From Daphnia carinata (taxonomy: Eukaryota > Arthropoda > Branchiopoda > Diplostraca > Daphniidae), in NCBI RefSeq assembly GCF_022539665.2, contig NC_081338.1, positions 1,240,001-1,304,000 of the forward strand: a stretch of 64,000 nucleotides of DNA, read 5' to 3'. Made by a program: the position numbers and the translations under genes. Below, in pieces: positions 1-61,798 of the stretch; position 1 is the stretch's first letter, and every line of letters starts with the position of its first letter. Under the pieces are notes generated by a model that did no database searches, was not told the DNA's origin, and saw nothing but the letters and a program-made list of their open reading frames with translations.

Positions 1-253
1 ATGCAAAAACAACAAGCGAGAAACAGAGAGCTCCAGAAAAAAACATCTCGGCGAGAATGACACTACTCGTCAAATGAGCCACGTCCAACATTTCAACGTC
101 AACTAAGTTAGAACGACAATCCCCTGTCCCTCGTAAGGCAGGGTTCATGTCTGAACGATCGTGAACTCAGCCGAAATCATGGCTATTGTAATTGCTGTGA
201 CAAGAACATTTTCTTGTGCTGCAATCCACAAGACTTGGAAGATATTGTTATGT

Positions 254-45918: not shown

Positions 45919-47519
45919 AAGGATTTTTTTTGTCAGAAAGTCGTCCAGCTCTGCCGCTTATCAAGGTCTGGGTAGAAAAAATTGGGGAAGTCACGGCACT
46001 CGTCGATTCGGGCGCTAGCGTAAGTGCAGTACGGCTGAGCGTCGTACGGAAATTTATGGATCCTCATCGCAAGGCCTCGAAATCTAAACTGAGGGGCGTC
46101 GACAACCAGCTTGTGCGGGTAGAGGGAGCCCTACCGTTGAACGTTAAGTGGAAGCGCAATTTTGTTAAACTTAAGTCCGTCACCGTACTTAGAACAGCTT
46201 CATTTGCGCTAATTTTAGGGGTGGACTGGATAGTGGAAAGTAAGACTAGCATTGTAGTAAGGGAAGGGAGAATTGAATTAGTCGGGGAAGGGTTAGTTGA
46301 GAGGGAAAATGAGAGTTTAGTGGCGCAGGAAAATAGGGATTTAGATTTTGTAAGAGGGGAGAGTAGCGTAACGGGAAAAGGTGTAAGGGGGGAGGAAAAT
46401 AGGGATTTAGATTTAGTAAGGGGGGGGAGTGCCGTAACGGGGAAAGGTGTAAGGGGGGAGGAAATAGGGTTAATTGAGGGAAATTTGAGTAAGGAGTGTA
46501 AGGAAATCAAAGAGGGCGAAGGGAAGAGGACAGAAAAAGTTTGGACGAAGGAGAAAAAGAGAGTGCGATGGGCGGAAGAAGTGGACATAATTAACGAGGA
46601 AAGCAGCAGTAGCGAAACATTTTTCGGGGAACAAGGGGGTACTGAAGAAGAGTTTGACGTAAGCGACGGTCTGATAGAATCTTTCGCGGAGGAATCGCCA
46701 TCCAAACGACGGGGTTGGATGCCAGTAAAAACGGACGGGCTCCAAGTAGTTCCACCCAACTCGCTCGTTTTCATAAGGGGAAGGTTGTCGACGGACATAT
46801 CGGGGACAGCGTGTGTCAAAACCAATTGTTGTTCGAAGCCGGAGAAGGAGTGGGTGATACCGGCTAGTGTAGTAACCGTAAATAAAGGACTAACGGAGAT
46901 ACCCCTGGTAAACTATGCCCCTGTAGAATTGAAACTGAGGCGACGGCATTTCTTTTGTGCCATTGAAATGAACGACGACGCCGTGTTGTCTACTCTGGCA
47001 GGCGAGGCCTCTGAGATCTGTGCCACCGTTCTCCCAGCACGTGATGAAGCCAAATTCACCACACAAGTTAACGTTGGGGAGGGGCTAGATTCTGACCAAC
47101 GAGGAAAACTTTTGAGTATGCTTGAACGTCGACGAAAATGCTTCCCGACGTCGAAAAGGGAAATTGGGCAGACCACCGAAGTTGAGCATCATATTGACAC
47201 AGGGGATGCGTGTCCGGTGAAATCTGCGCCATACAGGGTTTCAGCGTTCGAACGGCAAATTATTGCGGGAAAGGTTGAAGAAATGTTAGAAGACGGTGTT
47301 GTCGAGGATTCTTTTAGTCCGTGGAGTTCGCCCGTCGTTTTAGTTCGGAAAGCAAAATCTGGAGACTATCGTTTTTGTATTGATTTTAGACGTTTAAATG
47401 CGGTAACGAAACGTGATGTGTATCCGTTACCTCGCATCGATGATGTTTTGGACAGGCTAGCCGGGGCACATTTTTTTCTTGTTTGGATTTGGCCAGTGGA
47501 TATTGGCAGGTGCCTGTAG
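45906..47519 (+). CDS. pol: Gypsy Pol, N-terminal part (protease, RT start)
   Basis: Protease with ALVDSGASVSAV and LILGVDWI. A long charged insertion at residues ~120-250 contains two imperfect repeats of about 25 residues (RDLDFVRGESS / RDLDLVRGGSA). The RT start follows with HHIDTGDACPVKSAPYR, WSSPVVLVRKAKSGDYRFCIDFRRLN and YPLPRIDDVLDRL. The reading frame leaves the RT at ~47480 next to a T7 run and ends at 47519; the continuation is in the overlapping frame from 47483. One indel, real or a homopolymer error, separates the halves. Confidence 0.9.
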   Translation: MASLKGFFLSESRPALPLIKVWVEKIGEVTALVDSGASVSAVRLSVVRKFMDPHRKASKSKLRGVDNQLVRVEGALPLNVKWKRNFVKLKSVTVLRTASFALILGVDWIVESKTSIVVREGRIELVGEGLVERENESLVAQENRDLDFVRGESSVTGKGVRGEENRDLDLVRGGSAVTGKGVRGEEIGLIEGNLSKECKEIKEGEGKRTEKVWTKEKKRVRWAEEVDIINEESSSSETFFGEQGGTEEEFDVSDGLIESFAEESPSKRRGWMPVKTDGLQVVPPNSLVFIRGRLSTDISGTACVKTNCCSKPEKEWVIPASVVTVNKGLTEIPLVNYAPVELKLRRRHFFCAIEMNDDAVLSTLAGEASEICATVLPARDEAKFTTQVNVGEGLDSDQRGKLLSMLERRRKCFPTSKREIGQTTEVEHHIDTGDACPVKSAPYRVSAFERQIIAGKVEEMLEDGVVEDSFSPWSSPVVLVRKAKSGDYRFCIDFRRLNAVTKRDVYPLPRIDDVLDRLAGAHFFLVWIWPVDIGRCL

Positions 47520-50020
47520 CGTTGGAAGATCGGGAGAAGACAGCGTTTGTCACTCCAGACGGTCTCTATCAGTTCACACGTCTGCCGTTTGGGTTGAGCA
47601 ATGCTCCGGCGACGTTTCAACGTTTAATGGATAGGGTCTTGGCTGGCTTGAAATGGCATATGTGTCTAGTTTACTTGGATGACATCTTGGTTTTTGGTCG
47701 TTCTTTTGACGAGCACTTGGCACGCCTAGAGTTGGTGTTAGCCGCTCTAGAGCGAGCAAATTTGACTCTGAACATTGACAAATGCGTTTTCGGCGCCACC
47801 AAGGTGTCCCACCTAGGACACGTAATCGATGCGGAAGGCATTCACCCGGAAGGCGAGAAAGTGCGCGCTTTAACTTCCATGCCTGTTACGAATCTAAAAT
47901 CATTACGAGGGTTTCTTGGACTTGCGTCGTACTATCGGCGTTTTGTCCCTGATTTTGCGTCATTGGCCCACCCTTTGCACGCTCTCCTCAAAAAGAATGC
48001 TGTTTGGCGGTGGACGGAACGTCACGAAGGCGCAAAGAGCAGTATTGTTGAGCGTCTTACGACTGCTCCTGTTCTGGCTCATTTCGATGACGCTCTGGAA
48101 ATCACCATTCAGACCGACGCAAGTCAAACTGGTCTTGGAGCAGTGTTGACGCAAGATGCTGGTGAAGGCCATCGACCTGTGACTTTCATCAGCAGAAGGC
48201 TGTCGGACACCGAAACAAGATATCACGCCAATGAACTGGAATGTTTGGCGGTGGTGTGGGCACTCAAAAAGTTGCGCACGTATGTTTATGGGAGACATTT
48301 TTTTGTTAAGACGGACAGTTCAGCCGTCAAGTGGATGATGGGGAAAAGAGACTTAAAGGGGAAGTTTGCGAGATGGGTGCTTGATTTACAAGAGTTTACC
48401 TTCACGATTGAGCACGTGAAAGGTACTGATAATATTGTTGCCGACACACTGTCCAGGAACCCTGCCGACGGCATTGTTTCCCGGCCAGATGATTGTCTAG
48501 CAGTCACTGTAAAGGAACCCGAAGTGGGTTATGCCTCAAAAGAGCTCGCCCTCTTGCAACAGCAAGACGGCCAGCTGCGGAAAATATTCGTAGCACTAGA
48601 CACCCTTTCTCCCTGTACAATTTCCCAAAATTTTGTCTTCCGTAGTAAGATTCTGTATAAAAAAAAAAAACACTCTGGTAGGAAGTTGCTACTCGTTATC
48701 CCGTCTATCCTTCGTAGAAAAATCTTGGAAGCTTGTCATGATTCTCCTTCATCTGGACATCAGGGTGTGGAGAGAACTCTTTCTAAAATTGAAAGTCGAT
48801 TTTGGTGGCCACGGCTGGGTAGGAGCGTAAAAATTTTTGTGCAATCTTGTTCTTTCTGCCAAAGACACAAACACGCAATTGGTCAGGTGGTTGGCCGACT
48901 ACAGCCCATCGAACCACCGTCTTCTCCGTTCCAGCTTATCGGAATCGATCACTTGGGCCCGTTTAAAGTCACTGCTTCTGGCCATCGTCACATAATTGTC
49001 TCGATAGACTATTTGTCGAAGTGGGTAGAGGTGGCTGCTGTTCCTGACACGTCGACGAGATTTGTTACGTCGTTCCTCGAGACAAACATTATCTTTCGCC
49101 ATGGTACACCACAACGTATTATCAGCGACCAGGGATCAGCCTTTACGTCTCAGATGTTCGCTGAATGGGTAACTCGCTGGAATATAAAACACATTTTGGC
49201 CACTGCAGAGCATCCGGAGACTAATGGATTAGTGGAAAGAGTTAATCGTACGCTAACACTTGCATTGTGCGCCTTTGTCAACCCCGAACATACGGATTGG
49301 GACTTACATTTAGCAGCCGCAACGTATGCTATCAATACTGCCCGACAAGCCACAACCGAGGTGACGCCGTTTGAACTAGTGAATGGTCGTCCACCAGTCC
49401 TAGCCATAGAAAATCTTTTTCCTTGGCCAAAGAACGAAGAAGAACCACATGCCACTTTTTTGTCATGCGTGTCGGAATGGAGGTCGTCAGCTCGTTTGCG
49501 CATCGTGGAAAAACAAAGAAAAAGTAAGGAAAGAACGGATCGAAGGCGGAAGCCGGAACCCGAGTTTCTCCACGGGGACCTTGTCCTAGTTCGTCGGAAG
49601 CCAAGAAAGAAAAATTCCACCAAGAAATTTCTTCCTAAATTTGTGGGGCCATTCCAGGTAGTACGGAAGCTGTCGCAAACAACCTATCTAGTCGAAGACC
49701 TGCCCGCGCAACGGAGAAAATCAACGTATAGGCGTTTTAACGTCCACGTCTGCCAGATTCGTCGCTTCAATGGTCGTTCGGATGTGGAGTGGGACGCTTC
49801 GGAAGATGTGGTAGTCGACGAGTCTTCATCTTCTTCATCTTCATCTTCATCTTCATCTTCATCTTCATCTTCTTCATCTTCATCTTCATCGTCGTCTTCT
49901 TCGAGCGACTCATCTTCGTCCGAGTCGGACGAGCCTCCACAAGGAGACATGCCAACAACAACCACAAGAGCTGGGAGACGGACAAGAAGACCTGCATGGA
50001 TGAACGACTACAACACATAA
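47483..50020 (+). CDS. pol: Gypsy Pol, C-terminal part (RT, RNase H, integrase)
   Basis: 845 codons open. RT: DLASGYWQVPV, FTRLPFGLSNAPATFQRLMD, catalytic VYLDDILVFG. RNase H: IQTDASQTGLGAVLTQ, then ETRYHANELECLAVVWALKK and KTDSSAVKWM. Integrase: H-H-C-C domain (HDSPSSGHQGVERTL … CSFCQRHK), then a core with GIDHLGPF, ISDQGSAFTS and HPETNGLVERVNRTL (D-D-E). A GPF-type C-terminal domain follows (KFVGPFQVVRKL). The tail has a run of about 30 Ser residues encoded by TCT/TCA triplets and an Arg-rich end. No chromodomain. Its ATG is internal to RT, not a genuine start. Confidence 0.93.
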   Translation: MDLASGYWQVPVALEDREKTAFVTPDGLYQFTRLPFGLSNAPATFQRLMDRVLAGLKWHMCLVYLDDILVFGRSFDEHLARLELVLAALERANLTLNIDKCVFGATKVSHLGHVIDAEGIHPEGEKVRALTSMPVTNLKSLRGFLGLASYYRRFVPDFASLAHPLHALLKKNAVWRWTERHEGAKSSIVERLTTAPVLAHFDDALEITIQTDASQTGLGAVLTQDAGEGHRPVTFISRRLSDTETRYHANELECLAVVWALKKLRTYVYGRHFFVKTDSSAVKWMMGKRDLKGKFARWVLDLQEFTFTIEHVKGTDNIVADTLSRNPADGIVSRPDDCLAVTVKEPEVGYASKELALLQQQDGQLRKIFVALDTLSPCTISQNFVFRSKILYKKKKHSGRKLLLVIPSILRRKILEACHDSPSSGHQGVERTLSKIESRFWWPRLGRSVKIFVQSCSFCQRHKHAIGQVVGRLQPIEPPSSPFQLIGIDHLGPFKVTASGHRHIIVSIDYLSKWVEVAAVPDTSTRFVTSFLETNIIFRHGTPQRIISDQGSAFTSQMFAEWVTRWNIKHILATAEHPETNGLVERVNRTLTLALCAFVNPEHTDWDLHLAAATYAINTARQATTEVTPFELVNGRPPVLAIENLFPWPKNEEEPHATFLSCVSEWRSSARLRIVEKQRKSKERTDRRRKPEPEFLHGDLVLVRRKPRKKNSTKKFLPKFVGPFQVVRKLSQTTYLVEDLPAQRRKSTYRRFNVHVCQIRRFNGRSDVEWDASEDVVVDESSSSSSSSSSSSSSSSSSSSSSSSSSSSDSSSSESDEPPQGDMPTTTTRAGRRTRRPAWMNDYNT
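49826..49915 (+). repeat. TCTTCA/TCATCT microsatellite coding poly-Ser
   Basis: A (TCWTCW)n tract inside pol encoding the Ser run at the integrase C-terminus. Confidence 0.85.
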
Positions 50021-53666: not shown

Positions 53667-53850
53667 TGCCGGAGAAATAGGACCTGGAGAAATAGGACCC
53701 GGAGATTTAGGACCCCAAAATAGGACCTATAGAAATAGGACCCGGAGAATTAGGACCCAATCTTCTAACATATTTTGAAGGGTCCTATTTCTCCATCATA
53801 AGGGTCCTATTTCTTCTTAGAATTGGTCCTAATTCTCCTTAGGAAATAGC
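53667..53850 (+). repeat. Left terminus of the 8.1-kb element
   Basis: Six GGAGAAATAGGACC-type motifs head to tail (one as GGAGATTTAGGACC), a 25-bp linker (AATCTTCTAACATATTTTG), then four motifs in the opposite orientation. It can fold on itself, and matches the right terminus in inverted orientation including the linker. Confidence 0.85.
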
Positions 53851-54279
53851 CCTAATGCCCGCTGTTATGAAGTCAGAACCGGACGGCACATGTAGTTTTC
53901 CGCACTCTAAACCACGTTATCAATTGCTCGTGTAATCAGTCCATCATAACTTTTTTGTTTGAATTCATATTTGTATTTTTTTTGCACGATTACACGCATT
54001 ATCTATTGCTTTACACAGCTCATGTATAAAAGTTATATTTATTTTTACACAGTGTTTGATTTTTTGCCCTTGACCTTTCGTTAATGGCGTTTCCAGTCCT
54101 AGTATCGCCCTCCCCCCTGGCTGATATCCTTATTCCATGCGAATTCCCGGAGACGAGGGGCATGCCTTCCCCTAAGTACTCCCTAATACACTGATAAATA
54201 AGAAAAAAATTATATATATATAATTTAAGACAAGCCCATTTTTTAATTAAAAAAATATTTGCCGCAAAACCATAAATAG

Positions 54280-54850
54280 AGACCTACGTGGCAAGAACGA
54301 AAATAATGAGTTCCGCTCGGATCATGGAAAGGCATGCCAGTGTATTGTTATACAAAACTATCATGGCACGGCCTGTAAATAATGGAACACGAGGCAGCTC
54401 ATCCATGTCAATATCGGCAATTCATACGATAAGTTTGTTTTTTTCGCTAGTTTATTCAGTTTATGCTTTCCTTTCATTTTTCGTTTTCTTAATGTTGATT
54501 TATCCCTTTTCTGTTGTTGTTCCTTTCTCTTTTCTTGTTCTTTGATGCGTTCAACCAACTCCTTTCTCGTTTGTGATGTTGATTTTATTCTCTTTCCTAA
54601 TTGGTTTATGAAGCTCGCAATCAATTCCACATTTTTTTTTAACCTATTGCGCTTAGTATTCTTTTATCTGTTGTAATACAGAAAAGTAAAATTAGTTGAA
54701 GGTCTATTTTTTTTGTCGAAATCAAAGTTTACCTTGGCATCTGTTATTTTTCCTTTGTTTGTTTAGTTTCTTCTTCTCCAACTTATCTAACTTCCGTTTA
54801 AGTTGAGTTTTCATTTTATCAGAGTCCTGCTTTTCCCCTGAAATTGGATG
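54280..54850 (-). mobile_element. Family K fragment
   Basis: The - strand encodes KMKTQLKRKLDKLEKKKLNK, a splice-like GTAAAC, then VELIASFINQLGKRIKS and KEQQQKRDKSTLRKRKMKGK. These correspond segment by segment to the Lys-rich coiled-coil pieces at 37250-37950. Confidence 0.65.
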
Positions 54851-54914
54851 GCATATGCTGGCTTGCCTTCCTTAAACAAAAAGATTATAGAACATACATA
54901 CCCTACTAGCCTTT

Positions 54915-55165
54915 GTCCGTCCCAGGGACATCCCATCTACGTCCTGGCTGGCCGATCGGGACGTCCCATTCTGACGGCAGATGTACGTCACCAGGATGTC
55001 CTAATGTTCGGTTTTAGGGACGTCCACTGGAGGACGTCCTACGGACGTAATTATTTGGAAGTCCTGGTAACGTCCTTATTTGGGAGTACTACGGACGTCC
55101 TTAGTTGGACGTCTGCAGGATGGCAAATCCGTACGTTCACTGAACGTACGTATTGGAACATCCGC
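54915..55165. repeat. Cluster of GGACGTCC palindromes
   Basis: More than ten occurrences of ACGTCC or GGACGT, several as full GGACGTCC palindromes, spaced 10-30 bp (for example ACGTCCACTGGAGGACGTCC). It resembles the terminal motif arrays of the other elements in the window and adjoins the truncated end of the ABAT-like fragment. Confidence 0.7.
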
Positions 55166-55344
55166 GGAATGTCCGGATCGCGGCAGCGAAAGGACGCAAG
55201 AAAATTTGTTTAAATTAAAATAAAACCATAAATTTTTGGTAATTGATTTACATATCATTTATTTTTACAAAATACAAATAATTAAACAAGAAATTCAAAA
55301 AAAACTTTTCGATTTGACTTCGGTAGCAACAGACGAACTAAATC

Positions 55345-56267
55345 CAGGTAAGCCTATTATTTACATTTGTTGTACCGATCAAAAAGCTCTTCAACTTCCG
55401 CCAAACAGCGACGATCTTCTTCCTCATTTTCACGCACAAATTCTTCCAACGGATACTAAAATTACAAGAAATATGAGATCAGGTAATAGTTTGAGCCTAA
55501 TTGAAATTTTAAAACTAACCTTGTGGCGAGGGAAGGTTCCAATTGGCCAGTCCTTTGTAGGAATGTCCAGTTTATGGACTGGCTTGGTATGAGTCGTGAT
55601 TAACGTACCAAACGTTCTGTCGTGGAAAGCGCCTTTTGTAACAGAGTAAAGGCTTTAATTTAATATTGATTCAACATTGTAACGTGTTTCTAAATACCTT
55701 TGAAAGACATAAGAGTCAGGTCAGAAACACCAGGCAATTGGTTCATTACGCAACTCGTCTTCTCCTCTGGGGTATATGACTTATCTCCCCTCTGTTTCCG
55801 GCGATACCAAACGAAAATTGCCTTGCACGCATTTTCGTTTGAGCACGATCCACACGCCATCGTCGTTACCTTTAAATATATTTTTTATTATTTGCAATAG
55901 GTCGGAACAATCAAGGAGCTACAACTTACCTCTGTATGGCCTTTGGGAGCAATACGTAACAGAGAATTCTGGACTCGCTGAGGATAATTTTCACCAGGAA
56001 ATACACCGAGGGCAGGTCGGTTTATGAATCTTTGAGAAATATAAATTAAAATTTTGATGTTGCCCAGACAGGTAAATAATCAATTCAATTACGTTCTGAT
56101 GTTTTCTTTATCTTGACATCTAATAATTCAGGGTGGTTGTAACCCAATGGAACTGAAGAGGTTTGAGTGTAAACATCAAGCAGAATATTGCCATCGACAT
56201 CGTATAAATAGTTTCGTATGCTCTTCGAATAATCGGCGAACAACTGCACTGCGTCCGAGATCTGCAA
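55345..56267 (-). pseudogene. ABAT: ABAT-like (4-aminobutyrate aminotransferase) gene fragment, five exons
   Basis: Five consecutive exons with short introns are readable on the - strand. E1 ~56105-56267 has [20 protein letters not shown] and [21 protein letters not shown]2 ~55926-56033 has FINRPALGVFPGENYPQRVQ; E3 ~55710-55870 has MACGSCSNENACKAIFVWYR; E4 ~55522-55630 has [21 protein letters not shown]5 ~55345-55460 has [20 protein letters not shown]. This is the N-terminal ~40% of a mitochondrial PLP-dependent GABA transaminase, without the lysine that binds PLP. The normally conserved HGRT is HDRT. The upstream first exon and all downstream exons are missing, so it is non-functional for catalysis. 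Confidence 0.85.
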
Positions 56268-56559
56268 AGATAAATTTGGTAATTTAAAGTCTTACGACGT
56301 TAACACAAAGTATGGCAAATAGTATAAAGAAAAATGGCAACTGACTTGAATTTTTTTCACTTTCTTTTCACACTGCTATGCGGCCGTTGCTCAGGCTGCT
56401 GTTGTTGCTGATGGAGAAAGTCGAATAACTCTGTTGTTTTACTTTGCGGGCCTTTCAACTGCTTCCAAAACTAAGAAAGAAAAAAAACTCAGGTTTGATG
56501 AATGAAAATTACGAACAAGAAAAACGAACAATACCATATAATATAGCATGCAACAAGAA

Positions 56560-57178
56560 TGAACAACATGGAACGAATCCGGGTTTTACCATCTTTATTC
56601 CTGCTGGATGTTAGGGTTTGCCACCTAAGACGATAATAAATTAAGGTAGTTAATAGTTGAAAATGCGTCTAACTGAAATGATAATTAAACAATGGCTCTC
56701 AGATACTATCTAGTAGGAAGATTATAAAAGTTTTTCAACATTCCAAAAAGTTATAATTATCGAGTACTTTAAATTTTAGATAAATACGAAAGAAATTCAC
56801 CTGTGGCAATAAGGCACTTGTCGTAGGTGATGGTAAGGCCGTCATCTAACTCAGCTTTGCGACCAGCAATGTCCAGTTTAACTACATGATGTCATCGCAC
56901 AACTGAAACACCACCATTTTCTTTGGCAACTAATTCCACTGGACTGCAGTAGAATTCATCCTGATCGAAGAACAAACTGGATCCAAAAATAGGTCACATT
57001 CATTAAAATAACGCAAAACAAAATTATAACTTTAGACAATCACCTTCACTTTTTTCCGTTCCACTGCTTAAACTTCAGTTTGTTTGACACTTCGGGATCG
57101 TCACTGAACCATAATTCTTACGCGATAGTGGTGGCCTCATGTAAGGCAAGTGGTTTTCTTCACCAATGACTAAGACCT
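56560..57178 (-). pseudogene. AIFM1: AIFM1-like (apoptosis-inducing factor 1) gene fragment
   Basis: The - strand carries pieces in correct order: VLVIGEENHLPYMRPPLSR (57178 down) followed, after a frame change, by KLKFKQWNGKK before a GT donor at ~57043. FFDQDEFYCSPVELVAKENG lies at ~56985-56905. VVKLDIAGRKAELDDGLTIT and YDKCLIATG run to ~56810, and a short Gly-start exon lies near 56630. They match the FAD/NADH oxidoreductase domain of mitochondrial AIF. Frameshifts and a stop interrupt it. It lies directly upstream of the ABAT-like fragment on the same strand. Confidence 0.8.
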
Positions 57179-57530
57179 AGAACAAATGAGTCAATTAAAA
57201 ATGGCGAGGTATTTTATGGCATGCTTATAAAAGTCCGATTCGATGAGTTGTAGCATTGAACGTGAACGGAAGAACGAAAAGCCTTTAAACCATAAAAATA
57301 AAATTAATTTAGATTCAATTACACATATTTTACCATTCATAGCTGGGTGTGTAGTTGGTTTTCTCCTCAACAACAGAATTGGTTGTCTTGCTTATGTAAA
57401 TTGAAATCCGTTAAAGCTCAGTACTTGCATCTTGAGATTAATGTCTTGACGTAACTAACAGCTGTAATGCTGTTATTTCATCTGAACGATAAGAACAATT
57501 ATTACATAAATTTCACGAACAAAAAATCTG

Positions 57531-57725
57531 TGGTGGAATCTATTGCAACGAAATATTTCGGTGCAATAACGGCGTTTTCCCCTATTGCACCGAAATCTTT
57601 CGTTGCAATAAGGGCTTTTTTCACTATTGCACCGAAATATGTCGTTGCAATAAGTGGCTTTATTCCCTATTGCACCGAAAGATTTCGTTGCAATAATTTC
57701 ATTTTTCCTTATTGCACCGAAATAT
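57531..57725 (+). repeat. Left terminal inverted repeat of the 3.2-kb element
   Basis: Four to five copies of a near-palindrome TTGCACCGAAATCTTTCGTT-GCAATA separated by 12-20-bp linkers. Each motif is itself an inverted repeat around CGAAA/TTTCG. Confidence 0.92.
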
Positions 57726-58049
57726 AAAAATTGTTATCCTACTAATATACTATAGTAAAACTGATTATTGTTAATTTAGATGTATATTATAACTCATATT
57801 AAACATACTAAAATATACCTTGAATCTGGCAATTACACACAGCTACTACCTGACTGGAAAGTCTTCTGCTATCTAGGAAAAATCAGTACAGTCTCGTGGT
57901 CCAGACAGACAGGTGTGTAAATTGTTCGCGTGTGCAACTACCCAAATTTTAATATTTACTTGTGACAGTGTTATCTTTCGTTTTTAATGTGGATAAAGCT
58001 GTGAAGGTAAGTCACATTTCCGTATTTTTTTATGCATAAAATTATTTTA

Positions 58050-58820
58050 CGTTTTTTGTTTCGGCTGGCCATGTTTTCCCGCCGTACTATGCCTTCGTTG
58101 GGCTATTTTCTTTTATTTTTTCTTTCTGTGGCTCATTTTTGCACGCCAGACTATGCATTCGTTGCGTTTTTTTCTGTTTTTTTTTCTGCGGCCCATTTTT
58201 GCCCGCCGGAATATGCCTTCGTTGCATTTATTTTGTTTTTGGTTTCGGCGGCCCATTTTCGCCCGCCGGGCTATATTTTCGTTGCATTTTTCTTTCTGTT
58301 TTTTGTTTCGGCGGCCCATTTTCGCCCGCCGGGCTATATTTTCGTTGCATTTTTCTTTCTGTTTTTTGTTTCGGCGGCCCATTTTTGCCCGCCGGACTAT
58401 GTTTTCGTTGCATTTTTTTCGGTTTTTTTTGGCGGACCATTTTTGCCCGCCGGAATATGTTTTCGTTGCAATTTTTTTCGGTTTTTTTTGGCGGACCATT
58501 TTTGCCCGCCGGAATATGTTTTCGTTGCAATTTTTTTCGGTTTTTTTTGGCGGACCATTTTTGCCCGCCGGAATATGTTTTCGTTGTTTTTTTTTTAATT
58601 TTTTTTTCGGCGGCCCATTTCTGCCGGCCGGAATATGTTTTTTTTTTTTTTTTTTTCATTGTTTTTTTCGGCGGCCCATTTCTGCCGGCATGCATATGCG
58701 TTTGTTGGGTATCTTTTTTGTTTGTTTTTTCTTTTCGACTGTCCATTTTTGCCAGCCAGACTTTGTTTACGTTAGTGTGTTTTTGTTTTTCGTTTTTCGG
58801 CTGTCTCTTTTTTTCTGATT
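58050..58820. repeat. T-rich ~57-63-bp minisatellite
   Basis: About 12 copies with recurring GCGGCCCATTTTTGCCCGCC-GGAATATGTTTTCGTTGC and T-rich spacers. Three + strand frames and two - strand frames are open across it only because the unit length is near a multiple of 3. It lies between the PHD gene's 3' end and the left terminus. CCCGCCGG cores are conserved while spacers vary. Confidence 0.9.
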
Positions 58821-58868
58821 CGCGCTCAATTTAACAACATAAATTTAAATAGATTTGTTTATTGTTTA

Positions 58869-60039
58869 TCATTTAGTATTTATACATAATTTGCAAATAT
58901 AATCCTTAGATTTGGGTACATCCTTTAAACCGTCGCATTTCCAGTGAACCCATTCTAGACAACAAGAACATATAACAGTGCCCACCTCCCCAATAATTTT
59001 TGTACAACTATGACAGTAAAATTTTGATTTCTTCTTCTCGATCAGCCTCTTCTTCTCCGCAACTACGAAATAAATAATGTTCCATATTAATAAATTATGA
59101 ATTTTAAATTTAAGATTAGTAATAGGAAAAATATTTACCTAAACTTGTTACTCCTAGCCATGCATCCTCGTCGAAATACATCTTGAATCGCCCCAAATCC
59201 CCTATTTCCTCCTCTAGGATTGCGGTTGACAAGTCCTGTGGAAATGTCAAAATCATCTCTTCGGTGACAAGAGATGATTCCTTTAACACTTTGTTGGCCG
59301 CATCGCTCCCAGCTGCCAGCAACGTAGTCAACACAACTAAAAGAAAAAAGTTTTTTCAGTACAAATTATAACAGCAGTCGTAATATCTAACTTACATCTA
59401 GCTTGGTCGACTGCTTTCTTTTTGGTAAATGGCTTTGCTGACCATTTAAAGAAATCAAGGGCCTTAGATTTAGCTTGACGTCCAGGCCCTCGCTTTCTTT
59501 GTGGTAGCCTAGTTGCTGGTTGTTCGGGTGGATCCGTAGAGGGACCTGCTTTTGGAGATATTTCTTGACAAGCAGGCATGGAACTAGTTGGAGATTCAGG
59601 GACACCGTTTCCTTCTTGCACGTCTCCTAATTCTTGCAGTTCGTCGTCATCTTCCTTTTCCTCTGCTGCTGATGTTTTTTTCTTCTTTGCTGGTGGCTGT
59701 TCCTTAGGCTTGTCCTCCTTTTTTCTTTTGTTGGTTTCCGATACGTTAGCGTTCTCTGGTTGGTTCTCGGCATCTAAAGATGTTATATTATTAGAAATCC
59801 ATAGCGATTGGTTTTAAAATCTAAACAAATATACCTTCGAATAATTGAATTTTTGCATTATTTTTCCATCGGCGAACTAGGTGTTGTAGAAGTGTAATGG
59901 CGCTGTCCATGGCAGGAATCGGTAGTTCTTGTACTACGTCTGCTACTTCAGTCAAAACGGCATGCAGGTTACAAATACTCAGATAATCTTTGAAAAACTT
60001 CTCTTCAAGAGGCCGCTTCCGTACTCCGTAATCCATCAT
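58869..60039 (-). CDS. PHD-finger protein, four exons, within transposable element
   Basis: Exons 59835-60039, 59396-59773, 59139-59336 and 58869-59062. Every intron is GT…AG, all junctions are phase 1, and the frame is open to a stop at 58869-58871, giving 324 aa. Residues 1-68: no known domain (KRPLEEKFFKDYLSICNLHA). Residues ~69-195: acidic and basic low-complexity region with Lys clusters suggesting nuclear localisation (KKEDKPKEQPPAKKKK) and RKRGPGRQAKSKALDFFKW. Residues ~196-260: DLSTAILEEEIGDLGRFKMY. C-terminus: a PHD finger, CHSCTKII…VICCSCLEWVHWKCDGL…YICKLC, with the Cys4-His-Cys3 spacing expected. PHD fingers bind histone H3 tails, so a chromatin-targeting role is plausible. The start is the first of two adjacent ATGs. 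Confidence 0.82.
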
Positions 60040-60235
60040 CCAGAGTTAATCTTTTAATCCTTAATGCTCATATAATATACAACTTCTCTTCATCATGCCG
60101 CTTCCGTATTCCATAATCTCTTGCCCACGGATAATCTTTTAAGCCTTAAAATATAGAATGCTTGCACAACTTTTCTTTATAATGCCGATTCCGAAAGCCA
60201 TTATCTGTAATCCATATATAATCTTAGAAAAGTAT
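59996..60235 (-). repeat. ~86-bp tandem repeat spanning the PHD gene start codon
   Basis: Three diverged copies start at 59996, 60081 and 60168 (AACTTCTCTTCA…GCCGCTTCCGTA). The innermost contains the ATGATG start and first codons of the PHD protein; the outer two are upstream, presumably in the promoter or 5' UTR. Confidence 0.75.
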
Positions 60236-60524
60236 TCCCAAAAAAACAACACTTTATTGCCACCATTAATCATTAGTCATCATTAAATGTCCTTGCATCA
60301 TACCACTATTAATGCAGATGCCCAGCAAGCATTATACTGTTGTCGGAGAAAAAAAGAAATCATAAGAATGTTGTCGGTTGATATTCTAAATGTATTTGGT
60401 ATTTAGTTAAAAAAAGTAACTAAACTAAAAAATACAATAAAAACTTAAAATAATATAACTTAATTAAATATACAATAAAATGTATAACTGACGTACATTA
60501 CATATAAATTGTGTGTAGAAAATC
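60236..60524. other. AT-rich spacer in the 3.2-kb element
   Basis: Presumed promoter side of the PHD gene; no other feature seen. Confidence 0.4.
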
Positions 60525-60716
60525 TTTCGGTGCAATAGGGAAAAATGAAATTATTGCAACGAAATCTTTCGGTGCAATAGGGAATAAAGCCACTTATTGC
60601 AACGACATATTTCGGTGCAATAGTGAAAAAAGCCCTTATTGCAACGAAAGATTTCGGTGCAATAGGGGAAAACGCCGTTATTGCACCGAAATATTTCGTT
60701 GCAATAGATTCCACCA
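60525..60716 (-). repeat. Right terminal inverted repeat of the 3.2-kb element
   Basis: Reverse complement of 57531-57720 with about one mismatch until the innermost motif. Confidence 0.92.
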
Positions 60717-60900
60717 AAATCGGTGAACATCTAGATTACCAGAAGGATGATAGTTATAAGGCAGCTAACAAGTTGGTTCCCAAATGGTTCATGGTAAATC
60801 ATGCTCTAGTTTCATGATTCTCCTTGATAGTAACCACCTAAGAAACATTTCGGATTAGTAATCTGTGTCAAATTTCCAACTGCAATTAATAAAATTATGT

Positions 60901-61182
60901 CTATACTTTAAATACCTTTCCTTCCAAGTAAATTTTTTTCTTCTGTGGTGCTAATGCCAACATGAATTTGAAATGTACCAAAACTGCCAAACCTAGGAAA
61001 TAAAAATTTTTTAATTTTACTGAAACTAGCCACTTACCTGTCAAACAAACACCGCTTACAATAAGCAACTTCAACGATTCATAGAATTGTAGGATGTTGA
61101 CACTTCGAGCTTGCAACAGTCGTCTGCTTGTAGTAACCGTTGCCATATATATCGTAAAAAACAATATTTTGCGCAAGGGCAA
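60901..61182 (-). CDS. Two-exon short ORF, possible captured mitochondrial-leader fragment
   Basis: Starts MATVTTSRRLLQARSVNILQ; GT donor after …VCLTG (~61041), AG acceptor near 60996, then LAVLVHFKFMLALAPQKKK to a stop at 60901-60903. The Arg-rich, acid-free start resembles a mitochondrial presequence. It lies on the same strand as the AIFM1-like and ABAT-like pieces, upstream of them once the nested element is removed. It may be the first exon of a captured gene or chance. Confidence 0.35.
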   Translation of the reverse strand: MPLRKILFFTIYMATVTTSRRLLQARSVNILQFYESLKLLIVSGVCLTGKWLVSVKLKNFYFLGLAVLVHFKFMLALAPQKKKIYLEGKVFKV

Positions 61183-61619
61183 ACAGTGTTTTATTATGAA
61201 ATTAACGTTTATTAAATTATTTTTTTGTAATAATTTTCTTAGTTATCTGTGTATTAAGAGGTACTTATGCGCCCTCCCAAGAATCTTTATTGAGGCACGA
61301 AGAAAAAAAAAGTGAATAGTGACACTAGTAAAGGGCGGGTGATGGTAGGCCTGAAAACACCGGTAAGAAAATGTAAAATGCAAAAATTCAAATACTGTGT
61401 AAACAAAATTACTTTTCTATTAAATGAGCTCTAAAAAGCAATAGAAAAAGCATATAATCCTGCAAAAATATTATGAATGTAAATTTTTTAAAAAAAGTTA
61501 TAATGCAGTGAAGAGGCGTCATATTGATAACGGTGTTTGAAGTGCAGAAACCGATACAACCCGTTCGGGTTTTTTTTTCATCATATAGGAAAAATAATGC
61601 CCATTGTACATTGATTTTT
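61183..61619. other. AT-rich spacer in the 8.1-kb element
   Basis: No coding or repeat feature recognised. Confidence 0.4.
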
Positions 61620-61798
61620 TATGATGGAGAAATAGGACCTCAAGGCTGGAGAAATAGGACCCTCAATATGGAGAAATAGGACCCTTCAAAAAATGTTCGA
61701 AGATTGGGTCCTATTCCTCCAGGTGCTATTTCTCCAGGTCCTATTTGTAGGTCCTAAATCTCCGGGTCCTATTTCTCCAGGTCCTATTTCTCCGGCTA
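61620..61798 (-). repeat. Right terminus of the 8.1-kb element
   Basis: Inverted counterpart of 53667-53850: three GGAGAAATAGGACC motifs, the linker (CAAAAAATGTTCGAAGATT), then six GGTCCTATTTCTCC-type motifs ending CCGGCTA. Confidence 0.85.

What the first reader, a model, noticed from the sequence alone, without database searches (positions are those of the whole stretch)
57531..60716. A young 3.2-kb inverted-repeat element whose only apparent gene is an intact PHD-finger protein
The termini are ~190 bp, almost identical, and made of near-palindromic motifs. The spliced PHD gene has four exons with consistent phases and no break. I see no DDE/D transposase, helicase or recombinase. Either the element is a non-autonomous passenger that keeps a host-derived or accessory chromatin reader, or the PHD protein is part of an unrecognised mobility system. 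From established knowledge, some Mutator-like groups and other DNA transposons encode PHD domains, so a derived member of such a group is the main alternative.
Basis: partly seen in the sequence, partly recalled or inferred. Interest (0 to 1): 0.88.

Follow-up and report, generated by a model that had tools for sequence, protein, structure and literature searches.

The report
Gutted Mutator transposon keeping transposase tail
This piece of water-flea DNA is a jumping gene that lost its cutting enzyme's core and kept only the enzyme's tail end, a zinc-finger domain of the kind that reads chromatin; it is a new example of a well-known kind of element.

Summary
The element is real. It spans 57532-60715 (3184 bp), has 195-nt inverted repeats 99% alike, and is flanked by a 9-bp target duplication with one change, AAAATCTGT/AAAATCGGT. 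All five paralogous sites that I fetched are empty; two carry exactly one AAAATCTGT. A sister copy on another contig is 99.56% identical. The genome is very probably Daphnia carinata.

The PHD "gene" is not an accessory or captured host gene. It is roughly the C-terminal third of a Mutator-like (MULE, ZSWIM-type) transposase. A 9.4-kb relative, C8:2227236-2236653, with matching termini and a perfect 9-bp duplication, carries the same exons downstream of FAR1-like, MULE and SWIM-like segments on one strand. A D. magna protein joins the MULE domain to part of this tail, and a pea-aphid protein has MULE, a SWIM motif and PHD in one chain. The window copy is an internal-deletion derivative: the junction at 59971-59973 joins the 5' leader to the post-SWIM exons.

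The two sister copies show no sign of purifying selection since the deletion (three CDS substitutions, all nonsynonymous; one frameshift in the sister). The PHD protein is most likely a passenger. The architecture matches published Rehavkus features, but clade placement was not testable. Verdict: ordinary derivative, new member of a known kind.

The parts
57523..57531 (.). left target-site duplication AAAATCTGT
   Evidence: empty paralogous sites L059 and L060 carry a single AAAATCTGT
57532..57725 (+). left terminal inverted repeat (3' side of the gene), ~4.4 units of 42 bp with near-palindromic cores
58051..58773 (.). 59-bp minisatellite, 11.8 copies, between the gene's 3' end and the TIR
   Evidence: related array in 10 of 15 end-bounded copies, window included
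58869..59062 (-). exon 4: PHD finger and stop codon
59139..59336 (-). exon 3 of the C-terminal transposase fragment
59396..59773 (-). exon 2: basic, NLS-like linker (KKKK, RKRGPGR; NLS likeness by eye)
59835..60039 (-). exon 1: residues 1-22 from the 5' leader, then post-SWIM transposase sequence
59971..59973 (.). internal-deletion junction (C8 2235875 side joined to C8 2228787 side)
59996..60236 (-). 5' leader: three diverged ~85-bp repeats, homologous to the leader upstream of the transposase exons in C8:2227236-2236653
   Evidence: (family D5)
60522..60715 (-). right terminal inverted repeat (5' side of the gene)
60716..60724 (.). right target-site duplication AAAATCGGT (one change from the left copy)

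Best explanation
The element is a young non-autonomous internal-deletion derivative of a Mutator-like (MULE, ZSWIM-type) DNA transposon. The parent carries one transposase gene in the order FAR1-like segment, RNase-H-fold DDE core, SWIM-like finger, helical and basic linker, C-terminal PHD finger. A deletion joined the 5' leader to the exons just after the SWIM finger, removing the presumed DNA-binding and catalytic parts but leaving both TIRs, so the copy was moved in trans by transposase from elsewhere (cut and paste, 9-bp duplication). The remaining 324-aa frame is the transposase's own tail, opened by an ATG in the leader that the C8 copy lacks. It is probably a passenger without a role in mobility. 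Shown: homology, gene order, junction, target duplications, empty sites, near-identical sister copy. Inferred: mobilisation in trans, and lack of function of the tail protein.
For: Window 60716-59974 aligns with C8 2236654-2235875, then 59970-58844 aligns with C8 2228787-2227540; the C8 stretch between is missing from the window. C8:2227236-2236653 has matching termini and a perfect 9-bp duplication and carries, on the minus strand, a FAR1-like segment (PF03101 E 0.029, below cut-off), PF21056 (E 1.2e-19) and MULE PF10551 (E 5.2e-5 in one exon, below cut-off; 8.3e-12 and above cut-off in the exon-by-exon translation), then a SWIM-like CxC..CxH motif (by eye) and the tail exons. D. magna P0004 joins MULE to residues matching window 69-194 in one protein; D. 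pulex P0001, named SWIM-type by UniRef, joins that motif region to the tail; pea-aphid P0006 has MULE and PHD (PF00628 E 4.6e-5) and aligns to C8 transposase residues 260-877. Perfect 9-bp duplications in 6 of 15 end-bounded copies, 8 of 9 bases in 2 of 15. Five of five fetched paralogous sites are empty. Sister copy L009: 12 substitutions and two 1-bp indels.
Against: No intact transposase of this family was seen in the assembly: none of the loci listed (66 matches, all 62 candidates scored) covers the query whole, and the two copies read in frame (C8, C3:5492 kb) are broken. The source of the recent transposition is therefore not in hand. In 7 of 15 end-bounded copies no 9-bp duplication was seen. 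The C8 gene has no transcript evidence here, so its being one gene rests on homologous gene models. The C8 copy lacks the minisatellite.
Confidence: 0.95

Rival explanations
1. The PHD protein is a natural regulator: a transposase tail that pairs with full-length transposase or occupies marked chromatin and damps transposition, like a KP-type truncated transposase.
For: Intact 324-aa frame in the window copy, with a basic linker and a PHD; KP-type truncated P-element proteins are reported as possible repressors (PMC12393704, passages).
Against: That paper says such repressors keep the DNA-binding domain; here the FAR1-like N-terminus lies in the deleted interval. The sister copy is frameshifted, and all three CDS substitutions between the two copies are nonsynonymous. 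The full tail is kept in 3 of 15 end-bounded copies, two of which share one deletion event; two further copies without both ends in hand, L020 and L026, also keep nearly all of it.
Confidence: 0.1
2. The parent has two genes, a MULE transposase and a separate PHD gene (MURB-like), and the derivative keeps the second gene.
For: In the C8 copy the tail exons lie about 5 kb from the catalytic exons; MULEs with two ORFs are listed in PMC6446971 Table 1 (passages).
Against: Helical and SWIM-like segments sit directly upstream of the tail on the same strand in C8, L020 and L026; D. magna P0004 and pea-aphid P0006 are single predicted proteins spanning the join. The window's first 22 residues come from the leader, not from a second gene's start.
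Confidence: 0.04
3. A host PHD gene was captured by an unrelated inverted-repeat element.
For: Host-gene capture is common in MULE-type elements (established knowledge); the surrounding repeat itself carries two host gene fragments.
Against: The relatives that could be placed are in this transposon family or in SWIM/MULE proteins of other arthropods; the genomic copies at L043, L046 and L049 were not checked for TIRs.
Confidence: 0.01

Closest known systems
Rehavkus elements (MULE outgroup; PMC6446971, Table 1 and section 8, passages seen)
   Same: 9-bp target duplication, TIR length within 26-400 bp, PHD finger in the transposase, minisatellite before the 3' TIR, arthropod host
   Different: Table 1 lists PHD as the zinc finger for Rehavkus, while this family also has a SWIM-like motif; hosts there are insects and annelids, here a crustacean; no Rehavkus sequence was available, so no tree
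Phantom and other arthropod MULEs (PMC6446971; PMC13359780)
   Same: MULE RNase-H-fold domain; SWIM in some Phantom members; 8-10 bp duplications; minisatellite after the transposase ORF in aphid Phantom members
   Different: no PHD finger is listed for Phantom in Table 1; clade placement not tested here
Pea-aphid XP_016657816.1 'ZSWIM1-like' (P0006) and Daphnia proteins P0001-P0004, P0008, P0009
   Same: direct homologues; P0006 has the same domain order from the MULE core to the PHD
   Different: all but P0001 carry catalytic-domain sequence, which the window element has lost
KP and other internally deleted P elements (PMC12393704, passages seen)
   Same: internal deletion leaves both termini and a truncated transposase frame
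   Different: KP-type repressors keep the DNA-binding domain; this copy keeps the C-terminal end instead

Membership tests
Mutator-like element (MULE) | target-site duplication of about 9 bp | tested here: met
   6 of 15 end-bounded copies perfect 9 bp, 2 of 15 with 8/9 (window is one), 7 of 15 none, of which L013 shares 7 bp out of register; empty sites
Mutator-like element (MULE) | MULE/RNase-H-fold DDE transposase in full-length relatives | tested here: met
   PF21056 and PF10551 in C8:2227236-2236653; absent from the window copy itself
Mutator-like element (MULE) | long TIRs with G/C at the tips | tested here: met
   195-nt TIR starting GGTGGAATC; G/C-rich first three bases noted for arthropod MULEs in PMC13359780 (passage)
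Rehavkus | PHD finger in the transposase | tested here: met
   C4HC3 at the C-terminus; aphid homologue PF00628 E 4.6e-5, 23.8 bits against a cut-off of 24; window sequence itself below the Pfam cut-off
Rehavkus | minisatellite before the 3' TIR | tested here: met
   58051-58773, 11.8 x 59 bp; related array in 10 of 15 copies, window included; not in the long C8 copy
Rehavkus | transposase branches with Rehavkus in a DDE phylogeny | not testable with these tools
   no Rehavkus reference sequence held
Rehavkus | PHD as the listed zinc finger (no SWIM listed) | tested here: inconclusive
   a SWIM-like CxC..CxH motif is present in C8, read by eye; whether Rehavkus has SWIM could not be checked
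KP-type repressor derivative | DNA-binding domain retained | tested here: not met
   FAR1-like segment lies inside the deleted interval; that this segment binds DNA is inferred from its family

The most novel reading that the evidence does not exclude
The transposase tail made by this derivative is a trans-acting modulator that uses its PHD finger (closest PHD fingers by sequence: YNG1, ING, TAF3) to sit on H3K4-methylated chromatin and bias or damp where the parent MULE inserts.
Probability: 0.08. Interest if true: 0.6.

Novelty: new member of a known kind. Interest (0 to 1): 0.27.

Why it matters
It shows that a 'PHD-only' inverted-repeat element needs no new mobility system: it is a transposase remnant. 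It adds a crustacean MULE family whose transposase runs from a FAR1-like segment through SWIM to PHD, with long repeated TIRs and a minisatellite, near the poorly sampled Rehavkus/MULE boundary. Why some transposases end in a chromatin-reader domain is an open and testable question.

Tried and rejected
Host-gene capture, a separate accessory PHD gene and an unrecognised mobility system were considered and rejected (see rivals). The Pfam PHD model alone was too weak to name the domain. AlphaFold of exon 4 with six sequences gave mean pLDDT 73 and pTM 0.46; in the Foldseek search the top 11 rows of 50 shown are PHD or PHD-containing entries, but 0 of 111 matches reached E 0.001, the best being 0.085, with TM-scores under 0.5 and rmsd of 8-9 A, so it is only weakly supportive. 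The profile search against PDB sequences (TAF3 PHD, E 1.6e-5) includes the aphid protein in its alignment, which may drive the score. The last homologue search by profile, which scored only the 7997 candidates sharing most words, added two Daphnia proteins and no annelid or further insect member. The Pfam MULE search of the genome gave 19 matches, two of them in this family's C3:5492-kb copy; the others were not assigned. No clade tree was built for want of Rehavkus references. Literature searches showed no report of this Daphnia family among the rows listed (15 of 173, 10 of 75); supplements were not read, so this is not proof of absence.

Full report
Observation. The window holds a 3184-bp element at 57532-60715 with 195-nt terminal inverted repeats that are 99% complementary. 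Each TIR is about 4.4 units of 42 bp with near-palindromic cores. The flanks are AAAATCTGT and AAAATCGGT, a 9-bp duplication with one change. The gene runs on the minus strand in four exons with GT-AG introns and an open 324-aa frame. Its last exon fits the C4HC3 spacing of a PHD finger. Pfam's PHD model is below cut-off, but the PDB sequence search ranks YNG1, ING and TAF3 PHD fingers first, at E 0.005-0.03 for the top five. Of the 24 ORFs of at least 50 aa that overlap the element, I scanned 10 with Pfam, and 0 of 10 have a family at E 0.01.

Host. The window is C8:1240001-1304000 of a 108-Mb assembly. A Daphnia carinata protein (P0009, LOC130693083) lies on a contig of 13,273,426 bases, exactly the length of this genome's C3. 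It matches the reading frame of the C3:5492-kb copy. The genome is therefore very probably D. carinata.

Mobility. The TIR query gave 102 matching stretches, counting both arms and internal repeats; only 40 of 65 candidates were scored. I fetched 29 stretches around the matches. Fifteen elements, window included, had both ends recognisable; I paired the ends by eye. Of these, 6 of 15 have a perfect 9-bp duplication (L009, L012, L015, L016, L024 and the 9.4-kb C8 element), 2 of 15 have 8 of 9 bases (window and L027) and 7 of 15 have none (L010, L011, L013, L014, L021, L033, L035; L013 shares 7 bp out of register). The window copy sits inside another repeat: its right and left flanks gave 41 and 60 matches, with 40 candidates scored each. 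In five of five fetched paralogues the flanks run straight through; two carry a single exact AAAATCTGT and three a one-base-shorter variant. A second copy, C3:732137-735318, has its own perfect duplication TCTGTCATT and is 99.56% identical.

What the PHD gene is. A DNA search with the gene region found full-length matches only in the window and L009; the three longest older copies, at C3:6040559, C1:7669261 and C8:2227540-2228787 (83-87% identical), begin at query position 71, while query 1-67 matches other places. That break is the junction: window 60716-59974 aligns with C8 2236654-2235875 and window 59970-58844 with C8 2228787-2227540. Between those two blocks the C8 copy holds a FAR1-like segment (E 0.029, below cut-off), ZSWIM1-3 RNase-H (PF21056, E 1.2e-19) and MULE segments, then helical and SWIM-like segments, then the tail exons. 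It also holds a hAT dimerisation fragment, which looks like a nested insertion. The same order of helical, SWIM-like and tail segments, with decay, is seen at L020 and L026, and transposase segments lie beside family TIRs at L030, L036 and L058. So the window element is an internal-deletion derivative and its protein is about the C-terminal third of the transposase, with 22 leader-derived residues in front. The start ATG is not present in the C8 leader. Content of the 15 end-bounded copies: full tail in 3 (window, L009, C8), partial tail in L021, catalytic segments in C8 and a little in L021, minisatellite in 10, none of the tested segments in L010, L014, L033 and L035.

Independent support for one gene. 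D. magna P0004 (749 aa) carries MULE domains and ends with a stretch 63% identical to window residues 69-194. D. magna P0002 and D. sinensis P0003 join MULE to parts of the same tail, and D. pulex P0001, which has no Pfam family but is named SWIM-type by UniRef, joins that region to the tail. Pea-aphid P0006 has MULE (E 1.1e-11), a SWIM-like motif by eye and PHD (PF00628, E 4.6e-5, 23.8 bits against a cut-off of 24) in one protein and aligns to C8 transposase residues 260-877 at 22% identity.

Selection. Against six older copies the tail shows dN/dS of 0.09-0.33, with dS 0.24-0.35; uncorrected intron divergence is 0.16-0.24 in five and 0.07 in the sixth, L021. Codons were read in the window's frame; five of the six older copies hold stops or frameshifts, the exception in the stretch compared being L044. 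That pattern is the past constraint of a transposase. Between the two sister copies there are 12 substitutions and two 1-bp indels; in the CDS there are three substitutions, all nonsynonymous, and a 1-bp deletion in L009 that breaks the frame, which could also be a homopolymer assembly error. The numbers are small, but nothing suggests that the truncated protein has been maintained.

Mechanism. The TIRs are intact, so the element should be mobilised in trans. No intact transposase of the family was seen: none of the loci covers the query whole, and the two copies read in frame are broken, so the source may be lost, unassembled or missed. A KP-like repressor role is possible but unlikely: PMC12393704 (passages) says such repressors need the DNA-binding domain, which this copy has presumably lost. 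Two aromatic residues (Y before the first cysteine, W two residues before the histidine) sit where H3K4me3 readers of the ING type have cage residues; this is recalled, not tested.

Comparison. PMC6446971 (abstract, sections 5 and 7, and passages) lists Rehavkus with 9-bp duplication, 26-400 bp TIRs, a PHD finger and a minisatellite before the 3' TIR; this family fits all four, but also has a SWIM-like motif. PMC13359780 (abstract and passages) surveys arthropod MULEs; its main text as held has no occurrence of PHD, SWIM, Branchiopoda or Crustacea. Clade membership was not tested for lack of reference sequences.

Verdict. Real, young and mobile, but an ordinary non-autonomous MULE derivative; the novelty is that of a new family member in a crustacean.

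Noticed in passing
window 53668-61796: The MULE derivative is nested in a second inverted-repeat structure (147-nt arms, 90% complementary, built of 15/22-bp GGTCCTATTTCTCC-type units) that carries broken fragments of two host genes, GABA aminotransferase (PDB match E 4.6e-33) and apoptosis-inducing factor 1 (E 5.6e-10, one in-frame stop). The DNA next to the insertion recurs at tens of places in the genome, so it looks like an amplified gene-capturing element.
   Followed up: partly
window 47444-50020: Long open frame with reverse transcriptase, RNase H, integrase zinc-binding and integrase core domains: it looks like a Gypsy-type LTR-retrotransposon pol.
   Followed up: no
L044 (G000:C6, about 5096.3-5096.9 kb): Another deletion seems to join the FAR1-like N-terminal part directly to the PHD-side tail, apparently out of frame.
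   Followed up: partly
L010 (G000:C10:5711979-5712292): A 313-bp remnant, almost all TIR, 99.6-100% identical to the window termini but without a recognisable target duplication.
   Followed up: no
L058/L023 (G000:C3:5491825 to about 5498096): Another copy that keeps the catalytic exons but in which no PHD tail was found; it overlaps the annotated D. carinata gene LOC130693083.
   Followed up: partly
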